A stretch of DNA of 35,350 nt from ANME-2 cluster archaeon (GTDB taxonomy: Archaea > Halobacteriota > Methanosarcinia > Methanosarcinales > Methanocomedenaceae), in NCBI GenBank assembly GCA_014237145.1, contig JAAXOC010000086.1, forward strand, positions 1-35,350, read 5' to 3'. A model generated the notes under the pieces. It was not told the origin of the DNA and ran no database searches. It saw only the letters and a list, made by a program, of their open reading frames with translations. Each line of letters opens with the position of its first letter. The first letter of the stretch is position 1. Shown in pieces: positions 3,304-28,076 of this stretch. The translations under genes and the position numbers were made by a program.

Positions 3304-3543
3304 CAGCCCCTCATCGCCTTCACTCTGCCCTGTTGCCCGTCCCGGTCTGCTTCATCCGCCCTTATGGTGAGGGAGCTGGCAGGCGCTTTACTGGTGCCTT
3401 GTGGATGCATGGGTATTCGGCGGTCCCGGGGTGCGAAGTGGATGTTATGTCGGTTAGCTGCCGACAGCTGTTAAAATATATTATATATGAAATACTGCAC
3501 CGCCAAGAGCGCAAAGCCAGGGCAGTAAAATCCTTTGCGGTCT
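3304..3543 (+). repeat. GC-rich intergenic repeat, copy 2
   Basis: Second direct copy of the unit at 2735-2962, with a small insertion (CGGTCCCGG) near 3420. The dyad is kept in altered form: AGCTG at 3457-3461 and CAGCT at 3465-3469, with CCGA between. Downstream the sequence repeats the CTTTGCG word several times up to ~3560, and a partial third start (CTCTCCTGCCGCCCCCTCTC, near 3598-3617) follows. No gene is apparent from 3216 to 3706. Confidence 0.7.
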
Positions 3544-14967: not shown

Positions 14968-14972
14968 AATAT

Positions 14973-15958
14973 AACATCAATCATCTGCAAACCCACTACT
15001 TCAATCCCCCTTAATAACACAAACCAATGCAGTCTTAATGTCCCGCTTCTGCTCATTGAGCCTCCGCAGGAAATAACCCAGCCAGCCCTTGCCATAGGGT
15101 ATATAACCACAGACCTTATACCCCTCCCCTGCCAGTTCCTCTTTTCGTTTGTCATGTGCCCCCATCAGCATCTGGAACTCGAAATTCCGGGGGTGTTCCT
15201 TGTTCAGTTGTATGGCCAGTTCAATAAGTTCATCATCATGGGTTGCCACTGCAATAAGTTCAAGTCCCCCCTCCCTGAACAACATCTCCAACGGGTCTGC
15301 ATAGACTTTTCTAATATCTTCATGCCTTTTAATGGCTATATCAGCCGGTTCGTTATATGCACCTTTACACAAACGTATCTTAGCGCCCATTGCCGAGAGT
15401 TCTTTCAGGTCTTCCGGTGTCCTGAACAGGTATACCTGGATGGCAATCCCAAGGTTTTTATTTTCCTTGTAGAGATGTTTGTAGATATCAATGATCTGCT
15501 GGGTATGTGTACTACCTTCCATATCCATCCATACAAAAATGCCGAGGTCGGCTGCCTTCTTTACCAGAGGCTTTATCGTCCCGGTGCACGTTGGCACATC
15601 TTTCATGAGACCCAGCTGGGTAGGTTTGATAGATATGGCGCTGTCTATTTTTTCCTGTTTGATGCCGTTAAGCAGCCGGTTATATTCTTTAGCCGAAGCT
15701 TCAATTTCTGCGATATCCTCATTATGTTCTCCCACATGGTTGATGATACCGCTAATTCCCCGACTGTTTGCGGATTTTGCCCTTTCAACAGCATCTTCAA
15801 GGTATTCGCCGGCAACCCAGCGTTTTGCCAAGTGTATCAGGATTCCCATATTATCTCCCATACTAAAATATTTATTATAACTTGTTAAACTTTGTGGTTG
15901 TATTTACTCGAAGGCGTATAATTTCTAACTGATTTACATCCGTCCCAAGCTGCCAGTA
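14973..15958 (-). repeat. segmental duplication, left copy (proline dehydrogenase gene plus upstream region)
   Basis: Bases 14973-15958 match ~22719-23700 in the same orientation. The match covers the whole proline dehydrogenase-like gene, about 20 bp downstream of its stop and about 95 bp upstream of its start (shared words such as GCGTATAAT and TCTAACTGATTTACA). The two coding copies are about 89% identical in protein by hand count (31 differences in 286). Confidence 0.85.
15001..15849 (-). CDS. proline dehydrogenase-family protein, copy 1 (substrate residues kept)
   Basis: This is a TIM-barrel, FAD-dependent proline dehydrogenase-like protein, which would oxidise proline or a similar imino acid to the pyrroline. 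Motifs along the barrel (numbered from the first ATG at 15861): SIKPTQLG with Lys79, MDMEGS at 112-117, IQVYLFRT, RLCKGAYNEP, VATHDD, FQMLMG, YIPYG and the last-helix pair Arg266-Arg267 in FLRRLNE. In E. coli PutA the equivalent Lys and Arg-Arg bind the proline carboxylate. I prefer the ATG at 15849, which has GGGAG five bases upstream, over the one at 15861. No pyrroline-carboxylate dehydrogenase gene is nearby, so the pathway is open. Confidence 0.85.
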   Translation of the reverse strand: MGILIHLAKRWVAGEYLEDAVERAKSANSRGISGIINHVGEHNEDIAEIEASAKEYNRLLNGIKQEKIDSAISIKPTQLGLMKDVPTCTGTIKPLVKKAADLGIFVWMDMEGSTHTQQIIDIYKHLYKENKNLGIAIQVYLFRTPEDLKELSAMGAKIRLCKGAYNEPADIAIKRHEDIRKVYADPLEMLFREGGLELIAVATHDDELIELAIQLNKEHPRNFEFQMLMGAHDKRKEELAGEGYKVCGYIPYGKGWLGYFLRRLNEQKRDIKTALVCVIKGD

Positions 15959-16240: not shown

Positions 16241-17065
16241 CTATACCTCCACCAACTTTGCTTCTTCCCACATTTCATTGAATTTTTCTTCTATTCTTCT
16301 GGCTAACTTTTCATCCCATATTTTTGTCATAGCCAGGGTATTACTCGGGTCAGTGGGGTCGTCAACCTGTAGAACCACCTTCTCAGAGTCAATGATCGTA
16401 AAATATGTTGTTGAAATATTATTTGTTGTTCTTAGATAAATATTCTGTAATGCTTCTTTGGGGCCATTCAATTTCCTAAAAATATCCTTAAAAATATTCA
16501 TCATTTCTTCAGATGCCAATACTCTTATTTTTATACCCCGCAGTGAAGCCTTGATAACTTTATCCATGATAAAAGGCATGTTTTTCAAAAATTGAACTTT
16601 ATAAGTATGCTGATATTCATGATAGATACAAATGCATATCTCTTTTTTCGCTTCTTCGAAATTAGCACTTACCAGTTCTACTACTTCGCTGCCTACAGCC
16701 GTTGTCCAGAATATCTTTTCTTCCGGCTGTTTGACATTGATCTTATTGATCTTATCAAGCACCTGCATAATCAGATCTCTTGTTTTTTGCAGATCTTTTT
16801 CCATATCTTCCTTTTTCATTTTAAGAATATGATCAAATGCTACCTTTGCTGATCTTGCTTTATATTTCTTCGGCCTGGTATTTTGAACCTCGATCAGTCC
16901 CTTACTGATAAGTATGTTCAATGTCTCATAGATCTTTCCAAAAGGAATCTTTGCTTCTTTATATATTGTGCTTGCTTCTGCAATTCCATGTGTCAGGATA
17001 TTCAAATATGCGTCTGTTTCATATTTAGTTAATCCAAGTTCCCGTAGTGATCTTCGTAGTTCCAT
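16241..17065 (-). CDS. TrmB-family transcriptional regulator
   Basis: TrmB proteins are archaeal regulators with an N-terminal winged helix and a C-terminal effector domain. Residues ~1-75 hold the winged helix (LRELGLTKYETDAYLNILTH, STIYKEAKIPFGKIYETLNI, LISKGLIEVQNTRPKKYKA). Next is a coiled linker (~78-110) and then a PLD-like sensor domain with the segment VGSEVVELVSANFEEAKKEI (~125-145). The gene is divergent from the surface protein/ABC operon and shares a 123-bp promoter region that contains a palindrome, so it most likely regulates that operon and itself. The signal it senses cannot be read from the sequence. The ATG at 17065 has only a weak GGGT upstream. Confidence 0.85.
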   Translation of the reverse strand: MELRRSLRELGLTKYETDAYLNILTHGIAEASTIYKEAKIPFGKIYETLNILISKGLIEVQNTRPKKYKARSAKVAFDHILKMKKEDMEKDLQKTRDLIMQVLDKINKINVKQPEEKIFWTTAVGSEVVELVSANFEEAKKEICICIYHEYQHTYKVQFLKNMPFIMDKVIKASLRGIKIRVLASEEMMNIFKDIFRKLNGPKEALQNIYLRTTNNISTTYFTIIDSEKVVLQVDDPTDPSNTLAMTKIWDEKLARRIEEKFNEMWEEAKLVEV

Positions 17066-17129
17066 TTACAACAACCCGCATGTGGTAATTAAGAGTGTAA
17101 ATCATATATATTGTTAGCCCAATCTTAAT

Positions 17130-17164
17130 ACAACTGTATAGTTGTTTTAAGAACTATATAAAAT
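17130..17164 (+). promoter_or_regulatory. divergent control region with a palindromic operator candidate and TATA box
   Basis: ACAACTGTATAGTTGT at 17130-17145 has perfect 6-bp inverted arms. An overlapping second dyad is TATAGTT (17137-17143) and AACTATA (17152-17158), separated by eight bases. The right arm runs into a TATA-like CTATATAAAAT (17154-17164) about 25-30 bp before the start codon of the plus-strand operon. On the other side, ATATATA at 17104-17110 could be the TATA box for the regulator gene. A protein bound to the dyad would block TBP on the plus strand. Confidence 0.55.
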
Positions 17165-17188
17165 GTACGAATATAATGAGGAATGAAA

Positions 17189-18481
17189 ATGAAAATTAAA
17201 CAGATGAAAATCCTGGCCAAATTGACCACTTTAGTATTAATTCTAACATTAATATTAATAGTTCCTTGCGTCACTGCAAGAGGTTATGATGCTCCGTCAA
17301 ATGCTAATCTGCAGATATTAACTGCAGAAATTAATCCACAGCCTGCCAGACCAGGCGAGGATATGTTTGTAAAGATCAATATTGAGAATTATGCAAAAGA
17401 CCCTGCGTTGGATGTCGTAATAGAATTAGAAGAAATCTTTCCATTTCATTTAAAATACAGTTGCAGTGAGCATAGTGTATCAAAACACCATACAAATACT
17501 ACCTTAACAATACCAAAAATCTCTGCATTTGGCAGTTATGAAGCTTTGTATTTTTTTACTGTTGATCCAATGGCACGATCAGGAGAATATGAACTTACTT
17601 TCAAAATGGCAAGTATGCAGGGGAAGACAATCGGATCAATTAAGAATGTCAGGATTAATATTGAGGGAAATCCTGATCTGGTATTGAATAATTCATCCAT
17701 ATCCCCCCAGGTAATAACGCCCGGTGATGAATTTATATTTAGCACAGATCTTACCAGTGTAGGCACAGGCAATTCCAAAAATATAAGAGTAAGTTTAGAA
17801 TTAGATCAACTTCCTCAAATCATTCCATTAGATGACAGCAGCAGGTTCATTCAGAAATTGGATGCACAGGAATCAGAAACAGTAACATTTCGATTAAAGG
17901 TTGCCAGCGATTCTGAGCCAACTTCATATAATATTCCAATAATAATAACCGGCACTGATGAGACACAGAATCATAGTGTAACCTCAACTGAAGTTATTGG
18001 CCTTGATGTTCAGGGAAAAGCTAAACTGACAATTGCCAATATTAAAACAGATCCGCTGCTTGGTTCGGTCAATGAAGAGATGACTCTTACCATCAGGATT
18101 GAAAATGCGGGGGAAGGGGATGCAAAATCAGTTAAAATAGCTATAGTGGATCTCCCATTCCCAGGAATAAAAGAAGCTTTTCTTGGAAAAGTAGAAGCTG
18201 ATGATGACAGCCCGGCAGTGTTTACTGTAATACCTGATAAAGGCGGTGAATTCACGTACTCTCTTGTTATCACTTATGAAGATGATTTTGGAGAACATAC
18301 CAGTGTAGAAGAATTAAACCTCATGGTAAACAGTAAAAACGGGAGTATAATAAATAATATTGTCCTGATCTCTCTTTTTAGTCTGATCGGTATTGGATTA
18401 TTTTACTTCAAGAAGGAAGATGGTACGAAAAAAGAACAGATTAGGAATTTACTCAAACTGAAAAATGAAAAAGAGGAATGA
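17189..18481 (+). CDS. secreted, membrane-anchored protein with CARDB-like repeats (COG1361 type)
   Basis: The protein has an N-terminal signal segment (LTTLVLILTLILIVPCVTAR), then three repeats of an Ig-like CARDB/NEW3 fold, each opening with a phrase of the type 'P(x)PGE(D)...V.I.N.G.G.A..V' (near 45-75, 170-205 and 280-320), and a C-terminal membrane helix (IVLISLFSLIGIGLFYF) with a basic cytoplasmic tail. Such COG1361 proteins often accompany FtsX-type permeases in archaea, and this gene directly precedes one. I chose the ATG at 17189, which has GAGGA six bases upstream; an ATG two codons earlier is poorly spaced. The domain probably acts outside the cell, contacting substrate or surface layer. 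Confidence 0.75.
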   Translation: MKIKQMKILAKLTTLVLILTLILIVPCVTARGYDAPSNANLQILTAEINPQPARPGEDMFVKINIENYAKDPALDVVIELEEIFPFHLKYSCSEHSVSKHHTNTTLTIPKISAFGSYEALYFFTVDPMARSGEYELTFKMASMQGKTIGSIKNVRINIEGNPDLVLNNSSISPQVITPGDEFIFSTDLTSVGTGNSKNIRVSLELDQLPQIIPLDDSSRFIQKLDAQESETVTFRLKVASDSEPTSYNIPIIITGTDETQNHSVTSTEVIGLDVQGKAKLTIANIKTDPLLGSVNEEMTLTIRIENAGEGDAKSVKIAIVDLPFPGIKEAFLGKVEADDDSPAVFTVIPDKGGEFTYSLVITYEDDFGEHTSVEELNLMVNSKNGSIINNIVLISLFSLIGIGLFYFKKEDGTKKEQIRNLLKLKNEKEE

Positions 18482-18483
18482 AA

Positions 18484-19683
18484 ATGTTTAATAATCTCAA
18501 AGTTTCCTTTTTTTTAGCATGTAAGTCTATTCAAAGAGGAAATAAAGGAACATCTGTCCTGACAGTTTTGATCATATCACTGATATTTGTAAACCTTATA
18601 TTCTTTCCTTCGATCGTTGATGGTGTAGAGGAAACATTAATTCGGCAATCGATAGAACATGTTTGTGGTAATGTAGTCATCGAACCAAAAGATGATCAAC
18701 GCTATATAGATAATGCAGATAGTATTGAAAAAAAAATAAATAAGTTGCCGGGAGTGGTCGGAACATCATCACGTTACATGACAGGTGCTACCTTCTTCTA
18801 TAACAATAAATTAAAAAGTGGGTCAGTTCATTCGATCGATCCATCTGATGAAGAAGTTGTAACTAAATTCCATTCAGGATTGATAGCCGGTGAATACCTA
18901 GGGAAAGAGAATACCAATGAGATTCTATTAGGAATTGATATAACCGGTAAAGAAGGTGAATTGACTGGTGATTCTGATCTCGGTGGTGTACAAGTAGGTG
19001 ATAAAATTGATGTGACTTTTAGCAACGGAGTCATAAGAAAGTATAGGGTTAAAGGTATTTTTGATATTAGTTCTATAAATATCAATAGATATGCTTTTAT
19101 CACCGAAAAAGAGATGGAATCTGTACTGGGAGTTGAAAACCAGGCATCAGAGATCCTTGTTAAACTCTCCCAGAGGGAAACTGAAGAAGAGTACAGGACT
19201 AAAATCGTAGAACTTGGCATAAGTGAGGATATCAAAACCTGGGAAGAAAAGACTGCTGGAAAAATAGGGAATCTTGTGAACAGTTTTTCTCTCCTCACGG
19301 TTATTTCAACTGTTATCAGTCTTATTATGGCTGTGGTTGTAATATTTATAATCATTTATATCAATACAGTCAATAAGAAAAGGCAAATAGGCATCTTAAA
19401 AGCTATAGGAATCGAACAGAATGTGATAATAAATTCATATGTGATCCAGGTATTGTTCTACTGCTTTTGCGGTATTGCTGTAGGATTGCTCTTGTTCTGG
19501 ATTATAGCATCTTATTTGAGTGTGAATCCTATACGCTTCCCCCTGGGTTATGTTGAACCTATGGTAGAACAGATACTTATACTTCAGAACATCATCAGTC
19601 TGATTGTTTTTTCATTGATCGCCGGATTTATTCCAGCATGGAGAACAGCAAATGAGAACATCTTAAAAGCAATCTGGGGTTAA
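18484..19683 (+). CDS. FtsX/MacB-type ABC transporter permease
   Basis: This permease has the four-helix layout of the MacB/LolCE group: helix 1 near residues 24-47 (SVLTVLIISLIFVNLIFFPS), a large extracytoplasmic domain (~50-270), then three C-terminal helices (near 272-300, 322-346 and 367-390). RKRQIGILKAIG-type text (KKRQIGILKAIGIEQNVII) is the coupling helix that contacts the ATPase. Such complexes usually act as mechanotransducers or exporters, not importers. The ATG at 18484 has GAGG seven bases upstream; an ATG at 18478 overlaps the previous stop as ATGA. It is followed by its ATPase after 3 bp. Confidence 0.88.
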   Translation: MFNNLKVSFFLACKSIQRGNKGTSVLTVLIISLIFVNLIFFPSIVDGVEETLIRQSIEHVCGNVVIEPKDDQRYIDNADSIEKKINKLPGVVGTSSRYMTGATFFYNNKLKSGSVHSIDPSDEEVVTKFHSGLIAGEYLGKENTNEILLGIDITGKEGELTGDSDLGGVQVGDKIDVTFSNGVIRKYRVKGIFDISSININRYAFITEKEMESVLGVENQASEILVKLSQRETEEEYRTKIVELGISEDIKTWEEKTAGKIGNLVNSFSLLTVISTVISLIMAVVVIFIIIYINTVNKKRQIGILKAIGIEQNVIINSYVIQVLFYCFCGIAVGLLLFWIIASYLSVNPIRFPLGYVEPMVEQILILQNIISLIVFSLIAGFIPAWRTANENILKAIWG

Positions 19684-19686
19684 AAA

Positions 19687-20346
19687 ATGATAACTATAAC
19701 CAATTTAACACGGACCTATGTCATGGGAACAGTCCATGTACATGCTTTAAAAGGTATTTCCTTAAAGATCAAAAAAGGAGAGTTTATTTCAATAATGGGT
19801 GCAAGCGGCAGCGGAAAATCCACATTGCTGCATCAGTTAGGTCTGCTGGATATACCAACGCAAGGCGAGATCCTTATTGATGGGACAGATGTTTCGAAAC
19901 TGTCAGAAAAAGAAAGGTCATTGTTCAGATTAACTCAACTGGGATATGTTTTTCAGGAGTATGCGATAATAAGTGAATTGACTGCTCTTGAAAATGTATA
20001 TCTGCCTATGTTGATGATGGGAAGAAAGAAACAAGACTGTATCAACGCTGGTATTGATATTCTAAACAAGGTCGGTCTTGGAGATAGACTTGACCACCTC
20101 CAGCATGAACTATCCGGGGGACAGCAGCAGCGGGTAGCCATTGCAAGGGCTCTCGTTAATAAACCGAAAATACTCTTTGCAGATGAACCGTGTGCAAATC
20201 TGGATAGTGAATCTTCAAGACAGGTACTTGAATTATTTAAAAAATTGAATAAGGAATTAGAGCAGACCATAGTAATGGTCACTCATGAGGACTGGCATAT
20301 GGAATATACTGATCGGGTTATTCATTTGAAGGATGGTTTGATTTAA
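19687..20346 (+). CDS. ABC transporter ATPase, LolD/MacB type
   Basis: All ABC ATPase motifs are present: Walker A GASGSGKST (38-46), Q-loop FQEYAI (89-94), signature LSGGQQ (142-147), Walker B ILFADEP (162-168) and switch His200 in VTHE. The 219-residue length and the GTVHVHALKGISL opening are those of ATPases paired with FtsX-type permeases. The gene begins 3 bp after the permease stop and ends one base before the methyltransferase start, so the genes are surely co-transcribed. Confidence 0.93.
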   Translation: MITITNLTRTYVMGTVHVHALKGISLKIKKGEFISIMGASGSGKSTLLHQLGLLDIPTQGEILIDGTDVSKLSEKERSLFRLTQLGYVFQEYAIISELTALENVYLPMLMMGRKKQDCINAGIDILNKVGLGDRLDHLQHELSGGQQQRVAIARALVNKPKILFADEPCANLDSESSRQVLELFKKLNKELEQTIVMVTHEDWHMEYTDRVIHLKDGLI

Positions 20347-20347
20347 T

Positions 20348-20902
20348 ATGAACGATAAGCAAAAGTATGTATGCCCTGTTGAAAGAGCTAATGGCCTTGA
20401 TAATATTTTTAGAAAACTGGTCCAGAATCCAAAGAAGATATTAAAAGACTATGTCAAAGAAGGCATGACTGTCTTGGATGTAGGATGCGGTCCGGGATTT
20501 TTTTCAGTAGAGATGGCTGATATGGTCGGTGAATCAGGTAACGTAATCGCTGCAGATCTGCAACAAGGAATGCTTGAGAAAGTAGAGAAAAAGATTAAAG
20601 GAACCTATATTGAAAATAGAATTAAACTGCATAAATGTGAAAAGGATAGAATAGGCATTACAACAAAGGTTGATCATATCCTGGCTGTATATATGGTTCA
20701 TGAGGTCCCTGATATGGATAAGTTCCTGTCTGAAATGCACTCAATATTAAAACCCGGTGGATATTTTTACATCATAGAGCCGCCTTTTCATGTATCAAAA
20801 AAGGCATTTGAAGAAACTGTGAACAGAGCATGTGCCATAGGATTTAAAGAAATTAAAAGACCAGGAATGATCTTAAACAAGACTGTGGTTTTGGGAAAAT
20901 GA
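20348..20902 (+). CDS. class I SAM-dependent methyltransferase
   Basis: This is a 184-residue Rossmann methyltransferase. Motif I is VLDVGCGPGFF (about 42-52), the acidic end of strand 2 is in VIAADL (about 70-75), and the post-II motif region is HILAVYMVHEVPD. It is a small UbiE/Type 11-like enzyme without a recognisable substrate domain. It starts one base after the ABC ATPase stop and ends 15 bp before the convergent tfuA remnant. Its place in the operon suggests that it modifies the molecule handled by the transporter or a component of it, but the substrate cannot be deduced. Confidence 0.85.
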   Translation: MNDKQKYVCPVERANGLDNIFRKLVQNPKKILKDYVKEGMTVLDVGCGPGFFSVEMADMVGESGNVIAADLQQGMLEKVEKKIKGTYIENRIKLHKCEKDRIGITTKVDHILAVYMVHEVPDMDKFLSEMHSILKPGGYFYIIEPPFHVSKKAFEETVNRACAIGFKEIKRPGMILNKTVVLGK

Positions 20903-20917
20903 ATATTCAAACCATTT

Positions 20918-21170
20918 CTACAATCCTGCCAGTTCTTTAATCTTTTCAATAACCAGCAAGGCATCTTCACGCTTAACATCCACTTCATTATGTACCAGGT
21001 AGTCAATTACACTATCTCGCTCATTTGCAGGAATAAGGCCCTGGTCCACACTCTTCCTTACTATAGCCGCATAGGTCCTGTCAGGATAGTACATGGAGCG
21101 GGCAATCCCAAGCAGCGCATCACCCAGGGCCTGGTCCATCGGTCCCAGGGATATCCATGATTCGGTGACC
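20918..21170 (-). pseudogene. tfuA 3' remnant (C-terminal third only)
   Basis: The last ~75 codons match the C-terminus of the intact tfuA at 23892-24548: ARSMYYPDRTYAAIVRKSVD and QGLIPANERDSVIDYLVHNE compare with AKSMYYPDRTYAAMVRNSVG and QGLIPENEQDTVIDYLIHNE, ending in the identical VKREDALLVIEKIKELAGL. Upstream of about 21170 the match stops and the frame goes into unrelated sequence. The conserved TfuA core is missing, so the fragment should not work. Together with proline dehydrogenase copy 1 it marks a former duplicate of the proline dehydrogenase-tfuA segment. Confidence 0.85.
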
Positions 21171-21300: not shown

Positions 21301-22683
21301 ATGCAATTTTACGATCGTAAAGATGAGATCAAGAGGCTCAGAACATTGACATCGCTTGACAAGAGCACAATGATTGTGATATACGGCAGGCGTCGTGTTG
21401 GTAAAACACGGCTTGTACAGCATGTTTTTGGAAAAGACTCGTTTTACTTTTTTGTAGCAGAAAAAGAAGAACGGCTGATCCTTGCTGATTTCAGGACTAT
21501 ATTGATGGAGCGCCGTGACTATGTTCCAAACTTTACAGATTTCGATGATTTTTTTAGTTTTTTGTTTACGCTATCAGACAAAGAGATTTTCATTTTTGAT
21601 GAATTCCAGAACTTTAAAAAAATCAACACCAGCGTTTTTTCTATCATCCAGAAATATTGGGATAAATACAAAGATGAACGAAAATATTCATTTTTATTCC
21701 TTGGTTCTTACACCGGTCTTATGAAACATCTATTCAAAGAATATAAAACACCACTATTCGGACGCTCGGATGCACTGTTCAATCTAAAACCCCTGCAGTA
21801 TGATGTTTGTAAAGATATACTGGTGTATCTGGAAATCAGCACCTTTGTTGAAATATATTCCATATTCGGTGGAGTTCCAAAATACTACGAATTATTAGAG
21901 AATGTAACTGACAGAACGCTATTGAACATTATCTCAGAACAATTCCTGGACATTGGTGCCCCCCTTCTTGACGAGGGTACAAATATATTGATCAGTGAAT
22001 TCGGAACTCAATACAGGATATATTTTTCAATTTTGGAGGTAATTGCCAGCGGAGCAAGCACTTTGAATGACATAGCAAACCGTACCGGTATCAAAAATAC
22101 CAGTCTTGGACCTTACATGTCCGATCTAATTAATGAATATGAAATCCTGGTGCGCAAAGTTCCAGTGAATGAAAAAACATCCAGATCCAAAAAGGGCAGG
22201 TATTTTATCAAGGACAATTTTTTCAAATTCTGGTTTCGCTTCATTCATAAGAACCGCGGATTTATTGAGAGTGGCAGACCAGGGTATGTTCTTTCAAAGA
22301 TCGAATCAGAACTTGATCAGTACATCGGGTCGGTTTTTGAAAACATTTGTGTTGAGTTCCTGTACAGATCAAATGATGAACAAAAACTTCCATTTGTATT
22401 CCAAAATATTGGTTCATGGTGGAACCGCAAAGGTGATGAGATTGATATCGTTGCTTTAAACGATGATACAAAAGATATTCTCATAGGGGAATGGAAATGG
22501 AACAATCGCAAGATTGATGTGGATATTTTAACAAAGCTCAAAGACAAAAAGAATTTAATCAAATGGAACCTTAATGCACGTACAGAGCATTACTGCCTGT
22601 TCTCAAAAAGCGGTTTTTCAAAACGTTTACGCGATGCTGCAGAGGATGAGGATATTTTACTTTTTGCACTGGATGACTTATGA
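21301..22683 (+). CDS. archaeal STAND/AAA-type ATPase with C-terminal nuclease-like domain (ATPase_2 + DUF234)
   Basis: The 460-residue protein has Walker A YGRRRVGKTRL (28-38), Walker B IFIFDEFQN (about 96-104), a sensor strand FLFLGSY (about 131-137) and the typical ATPase_2 phrase FGGVPKYYELL (about 189-199). A winged-helix segment follows (~245-300, ASTLNDIANRTGIKNTSLGP). The C-terminal DUF234 domain carries GDEIDIVALND...ILIGEWKW, which fits the D...ExK core of the PD-(D/E)XK nuclease fold. Such proteins are abundant, variable and often mobile in archaea; their role is not established. It sits as an island between the tfuA remnant and proline dehydrogenase copy 2. Confidence 0.85.
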   Translation: MQFYDRKDEIKRLRTLTSLDKSTMIVIYGRRRVGKTRLVQHVFGKDSFYFFVAEKEERLILADFRTILMERRDYVPNFTDFDDFFSFLFTLSDKEIFIFDEFQNFKKINTSVFSIIQKYWDKYKDERKYSFLFLGSYTGLMKHLFKEYKTPLFGRSDALFNLKPLQYDVCKDILVYLEISTFVEIYSIFGGVPKYYELLENVTDRTLLNIISEQFLDIGAPLLDEGTNILISEFGTQYRIYFSILEVIASGASTLNDIANRTGIKNTSLGPYMSDLINEYEILVRKVPVNEKTSRSKKGRYFIKDNFFKFWFRFIHKNRGFIESGRPGYVLSKIESELDQYIGSVFENICVEFLYRSNDEQKLPFVFQNIGSWWNRKGDEIDIVALNDDTKDILIGEWKWNNRKIDVDILTKLKDKKNLIKWNLNARTEHYCLFSKSGFSKRLRDAAEDEDILLFALDDL

Positions 22684-22718: not shown

Positions 22719-23700
22719 ATTAACATCAGTCATCTGCAAACCCACTGCTTCAATCCCCCTTAATAACACAAACCACTGCAGTCTTAATATCCCTCTTCTG
22801 CTCATTGAGCCCGTGCAGGAAATAACCCAGCCAGGCCTTCCCGTAGGGTATATAACCACAGACCTTATACCCCTCCCGGGCCAGTTCCTCTTTTTGTTTG
22901 TCATGTGTCCCCATCAGCATCTGTAACTCAAAATTCCGGGGGTATTCCTTGTTCAATTGCCTGGCCAGTTCGATAATTTCATCATCATGGGTGGCCACTG
23001 CAATAAGTTCAAGTCCCCTCTTGGCAAACAGCATCTCTAACAGGTATGCATAGGCTTTTCTAATATCCTCATGCTTTTTAATGGCTATATCAGCAGGTTC
23101 ATTATATGCACCTTTACACAAACGTATCTTGGCGCCCATTGCCGAGAGTTCTTCCAGGTCTTTTGGTGTCCTGAACAGGTATGTCTGTATGGCAATTCCC
23201 AGGTTCTTATTTTCCTTGTAGAGATGTTTATAGATATCAATGATCTGCTGGGTATGGGTGCTTCCTTCCATATCCATCCATACAAAAATGCCAAAGTCAG
23301 CTGCTTTCTTTACCAAAGGCTCTATCGTCCTGGTGCACGTGGGCACATCTTTCATAAGACCCAGTTGGGTAGGGTTGATAGATATTGCGCTGTCTATTTT
23401 TTCCTGTTTGATGCCGTCCAGCAGCCGGTTATATTCTTCAGCTGAAGCTTCTATCTTTGCGATATCCTCATTATGTTCTCCCACATGGTTGATGATACCG
23501 CTAATTCCCCGATTGTTTATGAATTTTGCCCTCTCGACAGCATCTTCAAGGTATTCGCCGGCAACCCAGCGTTTTGCCAGGTGTATCAGGATTCCCATAT
23601 TATCTCCCATACTTAATTAATTATCATGACTTATTAAACTTAGTGGTTGGATTTACTCAAATGCGTATAATATCTAACTGATTTACACCCATCTTAAGGT
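22719..23700 (-). repeat. segmental duplication, right copy
   Basis: Counterpart of 14973-15958. Similarity begins near AACATCAGTCATCTGCAAAC and ends about 90 bp upstream of the proline dehydrogenase start. The remaining 190 bp up to the tfuA stop (23701-23891) show no counterpart in the left copy, and I see no gene in them. Confidence 0.85.
22750..23598 (-). CDS. proline dehydrogenase-family protein, copy 2 (substrate-binding residues replaced)
   Basis: This copy has the same length and barrel motifs as copy 1 (MDMEGS, RLCKGAYNEP, VATHDD, YIPYG), with an intact frame and the same Shine-Dalgarno before the second ATG (23598). The residues equivalent to the carboxylate clamp of known proline dehydrogenases differ: Lys79 is Asn (ISINPTQLG), and Arg266-Arg267 are His-Gly (FLHGLNE). 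Residues thought to hold FAD or shape the barrel are mostly unchanged. It lies 281 bp downstream of tfuA on the same strand. It may act on another substrate, bind flavin without this activity, or be an early stage of decay. Confidence 0.8.
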   Translation of the reverse strand: MGILIHLAKRWVAGEYLEDAVERAKFINNRGISGIINHVGEHNEDIAKIEASAEEYNRLLDGIKQEKIDSAISINPTQLGLMKDVPTCTRTIEPLVKKAADFGIFVWMDMEGSTHTQQIIDIYKHLYKENKNLGIAIQTYLFRTPKDLEELSAMGAKIRLCKGAYNEPADIAIKKHEDIRKAYAYLLEMLFAKRGLELIAVATHDDEIIELARQLNKEYPRNFELQMLMGTHDKQKEELAREGYKVCGYIPYGKAWLGYFLHGLNEQKRDIKTAVVCVIKGD

Positions 23701-23891: not shown

Positions 23892-24548
23892 TTACAACCC
23901 AGCCAGTTCTTTTATCTTTTCAATAACCAACAAGGCATCTTCACGCTTAACATCCACTTCATTGTGAATCAAGTAATCAATGACAGTATCCTGCTCATTT
24001 TCAGGAATAAGGCCCTGTCCCACACTGTTCCTTACCATAGCCGCATAGGTCCTGTCAGGATAATACATCGACTTAGCCGCCTCAAGCAGCATATCGCTCT
24101 GGTGCTGGTCGATAATTCCTTCTTCCACAGCAAATCCAAGGGTTGTCCTCATATTGACCAGCGGGACCGACAGCGGTTCAAGCGTCTCCGGATGGAACGT
24201 GACAGCCACCTCGTCATCTGATTCCACAACCCCGTCGCGGTACCACTCATATATCCGCCCCACCCCTATAATGCCGTAAGTATCAAGTTCAGATGCCCTC
24301 AGTGCCCCCATGCTGCAGCCACCGACCACGGTAACCCCTGCCTTTATTGCACGGATTATCTCCCTGTGGGCCACTGCTGCCCTGTCAAAAAATATGCCGT
24401 CAATGATGCCTATGATGTCAGGACCCCCTTTATCCACCAGGATATTGATATCATTTCTTTTTACAGGCGGCCGGTAGTCAGCATCAAGCAACGACCCTGC
24501 TTCCTCCCAGCTAAGGCTGGTTCCGGTAAAGACCACAATCTCTGTCAT
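23892..24548 (-). CDS. tfuA: TfuA-related McrA-glycine thioamidation protein
   Basis: TfuA works with YcaO to turn the glycine of McrA into thioglycine, probably by supplying sulfide. The protein opens IVVFTGTSLSWEEAGSLLDA and has the family core GPDIIGIIDGIFFDRAAVAHREI (about 52-75) and GVTVVGGCSMGALRASELDT (about 82-101). The 218-residue length is normal. The start overlaps the ycaO stop in an ATGA-like junction (24545-24548), showing one transcript and coupled translation. The last third is also present as a remnant at 20918-21170. Confidence 0.9.
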   Translation of the reverse strand: MTEIVVFTGTSLSWEEAGSLLDADYRPPVKRNDINILVDKGGPDIIGIIDGIFFDRAAVAHREIIRAIKAGVTVVGGCSMGALRASELDTYGIIGVGRIYEWYRDGVVESDDEVAVTFHPETLEPLSVPLVNMRTTLGFAVEEGIIDQHQSDMLLEAAKSMYYPDRTYAAMVRNSVGQGLIPENEQDTVIDYLIHNEVDVKREDALLVIEKIKELAGL

Positions 24549-25831
24549 GTCACCGGCCGTGGTTTGAAGGTTCGTTTGGTCCTGGTCCTGGGTTTTCGTC
24601 CGATCTTCATGCGCTTACCCTTGCGCTCCCGGTCAAGCGTATACTGTTCAAAGGTTGGCAGGACTGCCCTTACCACTGGCAGGTTCAATGAAGTGCTGGA
24701 AATATCCACTATGACCGCATAAGGAATTATGCCGCGCAGCATATCTACAGTTGCCCGGATATCCTTAGCAGGGGTATTGGCGGATTTATCCTCAAGGTCG
24801 GACAAGGTAACTTTCTCAGCAGAATCAATATACCAGTAGCGGTTCAACCGTTTCATGGCATCGTACCCGAAGGTGCGGACCACAGATTCCCTGTCAGTAT
24901 CCTCCCTGGCACCGTGTATCTGCACTACCCTGCTCTGTGCGGCTTCGGTCAGGGCCCTCGACACCGCAATTTCAGGTATAAGGTGTGACCCCGCACCCAT
25001 GACCAGCAGGGCAGGATCTTTCAGGACCGGGTCATCCAGGGCGCAAACAACTGTGTACAGGCCGATATCGTGGGTCAGCAGCCATACTTTTGCTATGACA
25101 CCTGCAGCTTCGAATTTTTTCAACAGGCCGTAGACGACACCATCATCCGGTGTAAGTATGATCTCACGGCCAGGGTTCTTATTGTACTCGGCAATGCTAA
25201 GGGCATCCCGCTCGATCACCTCAAGCAGGCCGTGAAGTATGGTCTCTTCCATAGTATTCCCTGCTGCCAGGCCGTTGGTATTGCTGCGGAACAACTGGTG
25301 TCCCCCGTTTTTTGGGTTATAGGGATGGTATACGGCATTCGACGGTACAAGGATGTTCTCCTCTGTCAGCAGGTCATAGCCCACCATCCATTCCAGCCTG
25401 GTGTTCTTAATAACAGGCTCTGCTGTCAGCAGGTCAAGAGGATTGATGGTGTTAACCTTTTGTGAGAGATTTTCAAAAGAATCGGCAATTTTGGGCTTGA
25501 TATCTTCTTCATCCAGGTCTTTGCCCAGGTCTTTGCTTATACTTGGCTGTTCTGCACAGCAGCGCTCCACACTTTCCATGATGGCTGATATCCTGGCCTG
25601 GGTATCATCGGCACCTTTGCCGCTGTAAATGGAAACGGCACCCTCGGCCGCACTGGGCCGGATGGCAGAAAATACTGGAATTCCTATGCGGTCAAGGTCA
25701 GTGATATCAGCGATCCTGGTAACTCCCACCTTATCCAGTATGCCTGTGATATTTTCCAGGGTTTCCTCAGGACCACATACCCTCTTGGTGCCCTCTTTAT
25801 ACTTTACAGCCGGGTCGATCTCAATGTTCAT
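24545..25831 (-). CDS. ycaO: YcaO-type thioamidation enzyme (methanogenesis marker protein 1)
   Basis: YcaO enzymes phosphorylate a backbone amide with ATP; in methane-metabolising archaea the YcaO/TfuA pair makes thioglycine in McrA. The ATP/Mg motifs are present: ARISAIMESVERCCAE (about 79-94), RSNTNGLAAGNTMEETILHG and LLEVIERDALS (about 180-215). SRALTEAAQSR (about 292-302) is the further conserved helix. The last ~30 residues are very basic (KGKRMKIGRKPRTRTKR and on to PRPVT), which I do not recall from other YcaO proteins of this group. AGG lies seven bases upstream of the ATG at 25831. Confidence 0.92.
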   Translation of the reverse strand: MNIEIDPAVKYKEGTKRVCGPEETLENITGILDKVGVTRIADITDLDRIGIPVFSAIRPSAAEGAVSIYSGKGADDTQARISAIMESVERCCAEQPSISKDLGKDLDEEDIKPKIADSFENLSQKVNTINPLDLLTAEPVIKNTRLEWMVGYDLLTEENILVPSNAVYHPYNPKNGGHQLFRSNTNGLAAGNTMEETILHGLLEVIERDALSIAEYNKNPGREIILTPDDGVVYGLLKKFEAAGVIAKVWLLTHDIGLYTVVCALDDPVLKDPALLVMGAGSHLIPEIAVSRALTEAAQSRVVQIHGAREDTDRESVVRTFGYDAMKRLNRYWYIDSAEKVTLSDLEDKSANTPAKDIRATVDMLRGIIPYAVIVDISSTSLNLPVVRAVLPTFEQYTLDRERKGKRMKIGRKPRTRTKRTFKPRPVT

Positions 25832-27653: not shown

Positions 27654-28076
27654 ATGAAGGATACTGATATAAAAAAGAGCATTAAATACCGAAGCAAGAT
27701 CCAGCGTCTGACCCGTTTGTTCAACAGCAGGAAAGCCGAACTTGCTGCCGGATACCAGGGTTACCATGAACTGTCAGGGTTTATTGACCAATGCCAGCGA
27801 TGGGGTATCACGGACCGGGGACAGGAGAAGTCCCTTGACGACTGGATCGACCTGCTTGAGCGCTGGCCTTTTGTGGGGGGTGCTCCTACCGGAACGCTGG
27901 CCCATCACCAGAGGCAGAAGACCATGGCAAGGGAACAATACAAATGTACCATGTGCGGCCGCCCGGCAGAGGAAGTGCACCATAAGGTCCCAAGGTCAAA
28001 AGGTGGTAAGAACGATTCCGGTAATCTTGTTGTACTGTGCAGGGAGTGCCATGAAATGCTGCACAGGAAAAGGTAA
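27654..28076 (+). CDS. HNH endonuclease-domain protein
   Basis: The C-terminal half is an HNH domain: Cys98/Cys101 (CTMC), His109-His110 (EVHHKVPRSKGGKN), Asn124 in DSGNLVVLC, and Cys129/Cys132-His133 (CRECH). The N-terminal ~90 residues are helical and basic, with a repeated Tyr/Trp pattern, and may bind DNA. The protein stands alone, with no intron, toxin or phage genes around it, and its gene has a short leader without a Shine-Dalgarno. A DNA repair or processing role is as likely as a mobile one. Confidence 0.85.
   Translation: MKDTDIKKSIKYRSKIQRLTRLFNSRKAELAAGYQGYHELSGFIDQCQRWGITDRGQEKSLDDWIDLLERWPFVGGAPTGTLAHHQRQKTMAREQYKCTMCGRPAEEVHHKVPRSKGGKNDSGNLVVLCRECHEMLHRKR

What the first reader, a model, noticed from the sequence alone, without database searches (positions are those of the whole stretch)
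22750..23610. Duplicated proline dehydrogenase whose second copy lost the substrate-carboxylate clamp
The two copies differ at about 31 of 286 residues, yet three of these changes hit the positions that bind the proline carboxylate in characterised enzymes (Lys329, Arg555 and Arg556 in E. coli PutA). Copy 1 keeps Lys79 and Arg266-Arg267; copy 2 has Asn79 and His266-Gly267. The rest of the barrel, the start site and the reading frame are intact. Random drift would rarely hit all three clamp residues first. This suggests selection for a different substrate or a non-catalytic flavin protein, in an organism where even the role of copy 1 is unclear.
Basis: partly seen in the sequence, partly recalled or inferred. 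Interest (0 to 1): 0.68.

Follow-up and report, generated by a model that had tools for sequence, protein, structure and literature searches.

The report
Dead duplicate proline dehydrogenase in ANME-2a
A methane-oxidising archaeon carries two neighbouring copies of a proline-oxidising enzyme gene, and the second has lost the three residues that hold and deprotonate proline, most likely because it is a duplicate on its way to becoming a pseudogene, although a retained non-catalytic role is not excluded.

Summary
Window 15001-15861 (P1) and 22750-23610 (P2), both on the - strand, encode full-length proline dehydrogenases differing at 31 of 286 residues. P2 has Asn79, His266 and Gly267 where P1 has Lys79, Arg266 and Arg267. 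These align with Thermus Lys99/Arg288/Arg289, the known proline-binding residues. Of 55 positions at least 95% conserved in 46 archaeal relatives, P2 departs at exactly these three and P1 at none.

One correction: Lys329 of PutA is also the proposed catalytic base, so P2 lost base and clamp together.

The interpretation (selection for a new substrate or flavin protein) is not supported. P2's omega is about twice background (0.36-0.39 against 0.17), concentrated in the C-terminal half (0.57-0.61, not distinguishable from 1). No other genome of the family carries this variant. A congeneric MAG has only a truncated, stop-containing remnant. The betaine/proline-type ABC transporter beside the gene in several relatives is absent here.

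Best reading: a tandem duplicate in a Ca. Methanocomedens (ANME-2a) MAG, catalytically dead for proline and being lost, its frame still intact. A non-catalytic flavoprotein or partner subunit remains possible, because the FAD-site residues, the N-terminal half and the frame are preserved.

The parts
22750..23610 (-). P2: proline dehydrogenase paralogue lacking the proline base and carboxylate clamp
   Evidence: Intact 286-codon ORF; PF01619 90 bits; omega 0.36-0.39
23374..23376 (-). P2 codon 79, AAC (Asn) in place of AAA (Lys); base position, PutA Lys329 / Thermus Lys99
   Evidence: PMC10651016, PMC6017737
22810..22815 (-). P2 codons 266-267, CAC GGG (His-Gly) in place of CGN AGG (Arg-Arg); carboxylate clamp, PutA Arg555-Arg556 / Thermus Arg288-Arg289
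15001..15861 (-). P1: proline dehydrogenase copy with all conserved active-site residues
   Evidence: Intact ORF; PF01619 104 bits; no departure at the 55 conserved sites; omega 0.14
14972..15938 (-). duplicated segment around P1, 90.7% identical to 22721-23687
   Evidence: self-BLAST
22721..23687 (-). duplicated segment around P2, including 77 nt of upstream sequence
   Evidence: self-BLAST; flank alignment
20909..21139 (-). 3' remnant of tfuA left by the same tandem duplication; its abutment on the ATPase upstream region is shared with congener G004
21301..22683 (+). AAA/DUF234 ATPase between remnant and P2; part of the conserved ATPase-ProDH-TfuA-YcaO order
   Evidence: PF01637, PF03008; same order in G002
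23892..24548 (-). tfuA, McrA-glycine thioamidation protein
   Evidence: NF033432, 295 bits, above cut-off
24545..25831 (-). ycaO, McrA-glycine thioamidation protein
   Evidence: TIGR03266, 477 bits, above cut-off
16241..20902 (.). genes lying between P1 and the tfuA remnant: TrmB-like regulator (-), S-layer-like protein, ABC permease, ABC ATPase, methyltransferase (+); no nucleotide match in the G002 or G005 contigs

Best explanation
P2 is a tandem duplicate of a monofunctional FAD-dependent proline dehydrogenase that has lost proline oxidation and is drifting towards pseudogene status while its frame is still open. Shown: P1 and P2 are duplicates with a tfuA remnant of the same duplication nearby, P1 kept every conserved residue, and P2 lost the lysine and both arginines that hold proline. 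Inferred: without Lys79 the substrate amine is not deprotonated, and without Arg266/Arg267 the carboxylate is not bound and the Arg-Glu gate (Thermus Arg288-Glu65, here Arg266-Glu45) cannot close, so P2 may still fold and bind FAD but cannot oxidise proline efficiently. P1 does whatever proline oxidation remains, to pyrroline-5-carboxylate.
For: Branch omega is 0.36-0.39 for P2, 0.17 for background and 0.14 for P1 (P2 against background LRT 5.4-5.6). In the C-terminal half P2 omega is 0.57-0.61, not distinguishable from 1 (LRT 1.1-1.7), but above background (LRT 6.1-6.8). Private codon changes in that half are 13 nonsynonymous to 5 synonymous, against 1 to 4 for P1. The clampless form occurs in one of 17 genomes of the family. 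Congener G004 keeps only a C-terminal ProDH fragment with an in-frame TAG. Several family members have no ProDH hit, two of them over 90% complete. The betaine/proline-type ABC binding protein encoded beside ProDH in relatives is absent from G000 and G002. Neutral evolution with 45 substitutions would leave no stop in 21.5% of cases, and indels are rare here (2 per 97 substitutions), so an open frame is no strong argument against decay.
Against: Over the whole branch omega = 1 is rejected (LRT 7.3-9.7), also without the three clamp codons (LRT 9.0-11.6). The N-terminal half shows no relaxation (0.18-0.21), though it may have been homogenised with P1. All other conserved residues, including the FAD site, Tyr253, Tyr263 and Glu270, are kept. 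That only the three substrate residues were hit is unusual for drift. P2 is predicted to fold like Thermus ProDH as well as P1 does (pLDDT 88.6).
Confidence: 0.58

Rival explanations
1. P2 is a retained pseudoenzyme: a ProDH barrel that keeps FAD but not proline, acting as a non-catalytic subunit with P1 (hetero-oligomer) or as a flavin-based regulatory protein.
For: Every FAD-site and fold residue is conserved and only the three substrate residues changed. Whole-branch omega is below 1. The frame is open. Thermus ProDH is oligomeric (PMC6017737). The C-half tree places P2 outside the P1/G002/G005 clade, so the copy may have been kept for some time.
Against: The C-terminal half is nearly unconstrained; the variant is found in a single genome; no expression data.
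Confidence: 0.25
2. P2 has been selected for a different substrate, for example an amine without a carboxylate, still oxidised by FAD.
For: Loss of exactly the carboxylate clamp while the flavin site and the ring-contacting Tyr253 and Tyr263 remain.
Against: Lys79, the proposed base, is lost too (PMC10651016). No branch or half shows omega above 1. The variant is not conserved anywhere else, and no linked gene suggests a new pathway.
Confidence: 0.08
3. The clamp changes are an artefact of metagenome assembly, for instance a chimera with a divergent strain.
For: The genome is a MAG in 118 contigs. P2 is mosaic: the N half groups with P1 and the C half lies outside the genus clade.
Against: The contig runs through both copies with the flanking gene order found in G002. 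The frame is intact across 31 residue differences, and no relative supplies the H-G or N states.
Confidence: 0.06

Closest known systems
Monofunctional proline dehydrogenase (Thermus thermophilus ProDH 2ekg/2g37; Deinococcus radiodurans ProDH 4h6q)
   Same: Same fold (P1 TM 0.85, P2 TM 0.87), about 30-33% identity, same FAD-site residues.
   Different: P2 lacks the Lys99, Arg288 and Arg289 equivalents; P1 has them. Both archaeal proteins score far below the NCBIfam Thermus equivalog cut-off (about 161 of 500 bits).
PutA proline dehydrogenase domain (E. coli 1tiw, 2fzn; Geobacter 4nma)
   Same: Barrel superposes; K329, R555 and R556 correspond to positions 79, 266 and 267.
   Different: P1 and P2 are stand-alone proteins with no P5C dehydrogenase domain.
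Truncated Thermus ProDH variant deltaABC, which lost Arg288-Arg289 (PMC6017737)
   Same: Lacks both clamp arginines; reported catalytically impaired and poorly reactive with N-propargylglycine.
   Different: It also lacks the N-terminal arm and the rest of the C-terminal tail, so the arginine effect is not isolated; P2 keeps the helix and changes single residues.
Single-copy ProDH of Ca. Methanoperedens and ANME-2a
   Same: 42-45% (Methanoperedens) and 94-95% (ANME-2a) identical to P1; Lys and Arg-Arg invariant.
   Different: No clampless second copy found.

Membership tests
Proline dehydrogenase (PF01619) as a sequence family | Profile score above the curated cut-off (27 bits) | tested here: met
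   P1 103.6 bits, P2 90.3 bits
Proline dehydrogenase (PF01619) as a sequence family | Distorted TIM-barrel fold of ProDH | tested here: met
   AlphaFold models with pLDDT 84 and 89; best PDB matches are ProDHs
Catalytically competent proline dehydrogenase | Lysine base at the position of PutA Lys329 / Thermus Lys99 | tested here: not met
   P2 Asn79; met in P1 and all alignable relatives
Catalytically competent proline dehydrogenase | Arg-Arg carboxylate clamp on helix alpha8 | tested here: not met
   P2 His266-Gly267, in the predicted helix 260-270; met in P1
Catalytically competent proline dehydrogenase | Conserved residues at the FAD site and ring-contact tyrosines | tested here: met
   D113, Q142, R163, K166, Y169, H208, Y253 and Y263 kept in P2; role assignments partly from knowledge of PutA
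Catalytically competent proline dehydrogenase | Proline oxidation with flavin reduction | not testable with these tools
   needs purified protein
Pseudogene | Disrupted reading frame | tested here: not met
   no stop or frameshift in P2
Pseudogene | omega close to 1 | tested here: inconclusive
   rejected for the whole branch, not rejected for the C-terminal half
Pseudogene | No expression | not testable with these tools
   no transcript or protein data

The most novel reading that the evidence does not exclude
P2 is a selected ProDH pseudoenzyme: an FAD-binding barrel stripped of proline binding by loss of exactly the base and both clamp arginines, kept as a regulatory or structural partner of P1 in an anaerobic methanotroph.
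Probability: 0.2. Interest if true: 0.6.

Novelty: new member of a known kind. Interest (0 to 1): 0.3.

Why it matters
If P2 were a retained pseudoenzyme it would be, as far as I know, the first in the proline dehydrogenase family, and would show how a flavin barrel can be kept without its substrate. If it is decaying, as I think, it is a clear example of a gene losing catalysis before its frame, and of proline oxidation being dispensable in some ANME-2a lineages. In either case P2 should not be annotated as a second proline dehydrogenase.

Tried and rejected
Recent single-genome duplication as a simple story: rejected in part. The tfuA remnant abutting the ATPase upstream region is shared with G004, and the C half of P2 falls outside P1/G002/G005 (lnL difference about 7) while the N half groups with P1 (difference about 2.5), so the copies are older and partly homogenised, or mosaic.

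Positive selection on P2: no branch or half gave omega above 1.

The same loss in other relatives: no relative outside this genome carries N79 or H266-G267.

Linked P5C dehydrogenase: the one strong aldehyde dehydrogenase in the genome lies on another contig and reaches no P5CDH cut-off; its best models are alpha-ketoglutarate-semialdehyde and betaine-aldehyde types. Its role in proline breakdown is unknown.

Published ANME/Methanoperedens proline dehydrogenase work: none of the 20 papers listed mentions the enzyme. Published PutA K329/R555/R556 mutants: no open paper found with those terms.

The first residue-table script misread minus-strand loci and was redone. The tfuA tree included unaligned flanks and is not used for branching order.

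Full report
What is there. The window lies in a MAG (2.97 Mb, 118 contigs). Its genus includes Ca. Methanocomedens sp. S7142MS1: the G005 contig of 10,021 bases equals PYCK01000131, which PMC9012536 lists as ANME-2a, Methanocomedenaceae. On the - strand, 15001-15861 (P1) and 22750-23610 (P2) each encode 286 codons, with 31 residue and 77 nucleotide differences. They are the only two proline dehydrogenase genes found in the genome. Both match PF01619, and their AlphaFold models match Thermus and Deinococcus ProDH at TM about 0.85-0.87.

The active-site claim. Alignment to solved ProDHs places positions 79, 266 and 267 on Thermus Lys99, Arg288 and Arg289 (the published numbering assumes a 20-residue tag in the 2ekg chain). 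In the models Lys/Asn79 follows the strand 74-78 and 266-267 lie in helix 260-270, as expected. PMC6017737 calls Arg288/289 proline-binding, Lys99 a ligand of the carboxylate, and Arg288-Glu65 an active-site gate; it also describes a truncated variant missing both arginines that is catalytically impaired, although it lacks other parts too. PMC10651016 treats PutA Lys329 as the catalytic base and Arg555/Arg556 as the carboxylate clamp. So P2 lost base and clamp. Among 46 archaeal relatives (ANME-2, Methanoperedens, other Euryarchaeota, Nitrososphaerales), 55 positions are at least 95% conserved. P1 departs at none and P2 at K79N, R266H and R267G only.

How surprising is it? Reconstructing the P2 branch gives 45 nucleotide and 20 residue changes. 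Twenty random residue changes would hit 3.9 of the 55 conserved sites, and 3 were hit. The number is therefore what drift gives; the identity is not. This exact trio among three hits has probability 3.8e-5. Any three from 14 substrate or flavin residues has 1.4%, and treating adjacent R266-R267 as one event raises it to about 6%. Because the trio was picked after seeing it, I take the last two figures as fairer.

Selection. I fitted a codon model with branch-specific omega to seven sequences. P2 omega is 0.36-0.39, background 0.17, P1 0.14. Both omega = background and omega = 1 are rejected for P2 as a whole; the first is marginal (LRT about 5.5), and without the three clamp codons it is no longer significant at 5% (LRT 3.4). 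Split in two, the N-terminal half is constrained (0.18-0.21) and the C-terminal half nearly free (0.57-0.61, omega = 1 not rejected). The split at codon 150 was my choice after seeing site patterns, so it is exploratory. The N half favours P1 and P2 as sisters, and the C half places P2 outside the genus clade, which suggests past homogenisation between copies or a mosaic origin.

Origin of the copies. In G002 the order ATPase-ProDH-TfuA-YcaO is single-copy and matches P2's surroundings. In the window a 3' tfuA remnant (20909-21139) precedes the ATPase, and P1 lies beyond a regulator/ABC/methyltransferase block. The remnant's abutment on the ATPase upstream region is shared with congener G004. 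An ATPase-ProDH-TfuA tandem duplication followed by losses explains this, but the direction of each step is inferred.

Context of function. In G005, G006 and G014 a quaternary-amine/betaine-proline type ABC transporter (ProV- and OsmF-like; the G005 ATPase is above the TIGR01186 cut-off, the binding protein below its equivalog cut-off) is divergent to ProDH; its binding protein is missing from G000 and G002. P5C reductase (proline synthesis) is present in all four genomes checked. No aldehyde dehydrogenase reaches a P5C dehydrogenase cut-off. G004 keeps only 85 codons of ProDH with an in-frame TAG. Proline oxidation therefore looks dispensable in parts of this genus, though MAG incompleteness (G004 is 79% complete) limits that inference.

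Verdict. The interpretation as adaptive re-specialisation is not supported. The most likely reading is a duplicate that is dead for proline and under relaxed constraint, its frame still open. A retained non-catalytic flavoprotein is the main rival, because whole-branch omega is below 1 and the FAD site is intact.

Noticed in passing
20909-21139: 3' remnant of tfuA, 83-88% identical to the intact tfuA at 23892-24548, marking a tandem duplication also visible in G004 (L031).
   Followed up: yes
L025:4078-7432, L027:3756-7114, L029:8935-12261: Betaine/proline-type ABC transporter (two permeases, ATPase, OsmF-like binding protein) divergent to ProDH in relatives; binding protein absent from the window's genome and G002.
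   Followed up: partly
L027:8174-11806: HdrA-, HdrB- and HdrC-like genes convergent with ProDH in G006, with similar neighbours in G009 and G014; a possible electron-transfer link, judged by eye only.
   Followed up: no
L023 (G056:C79:111934-112119): An N-terminal ProDH fragment about 860 bases before a complete ProDH in Methanoperedens BLZ2, an independent partial duplication.
   Followed up: no
L027 and L028 (G006 C24 and C38): ProDH occurs with equal scores and coordinates offset by 106 bases on two contigs of G006; probably a repeated region or duplicated assembly.
   Followed up: no
112-1247: Two overlapping - strand ORFs that look like an insertion-sequence transposase split by a frame change.
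   Followed up: no
2739-2963 and 3307-3541: Direct repeat of about 230 bases, 83% identical, mostly outside predicted genes.
   Followed up: no
27654-28076: Small protein whose C-terminal HNH part resembles IscB (42 bits, far below cut-off).
   Followed up: no
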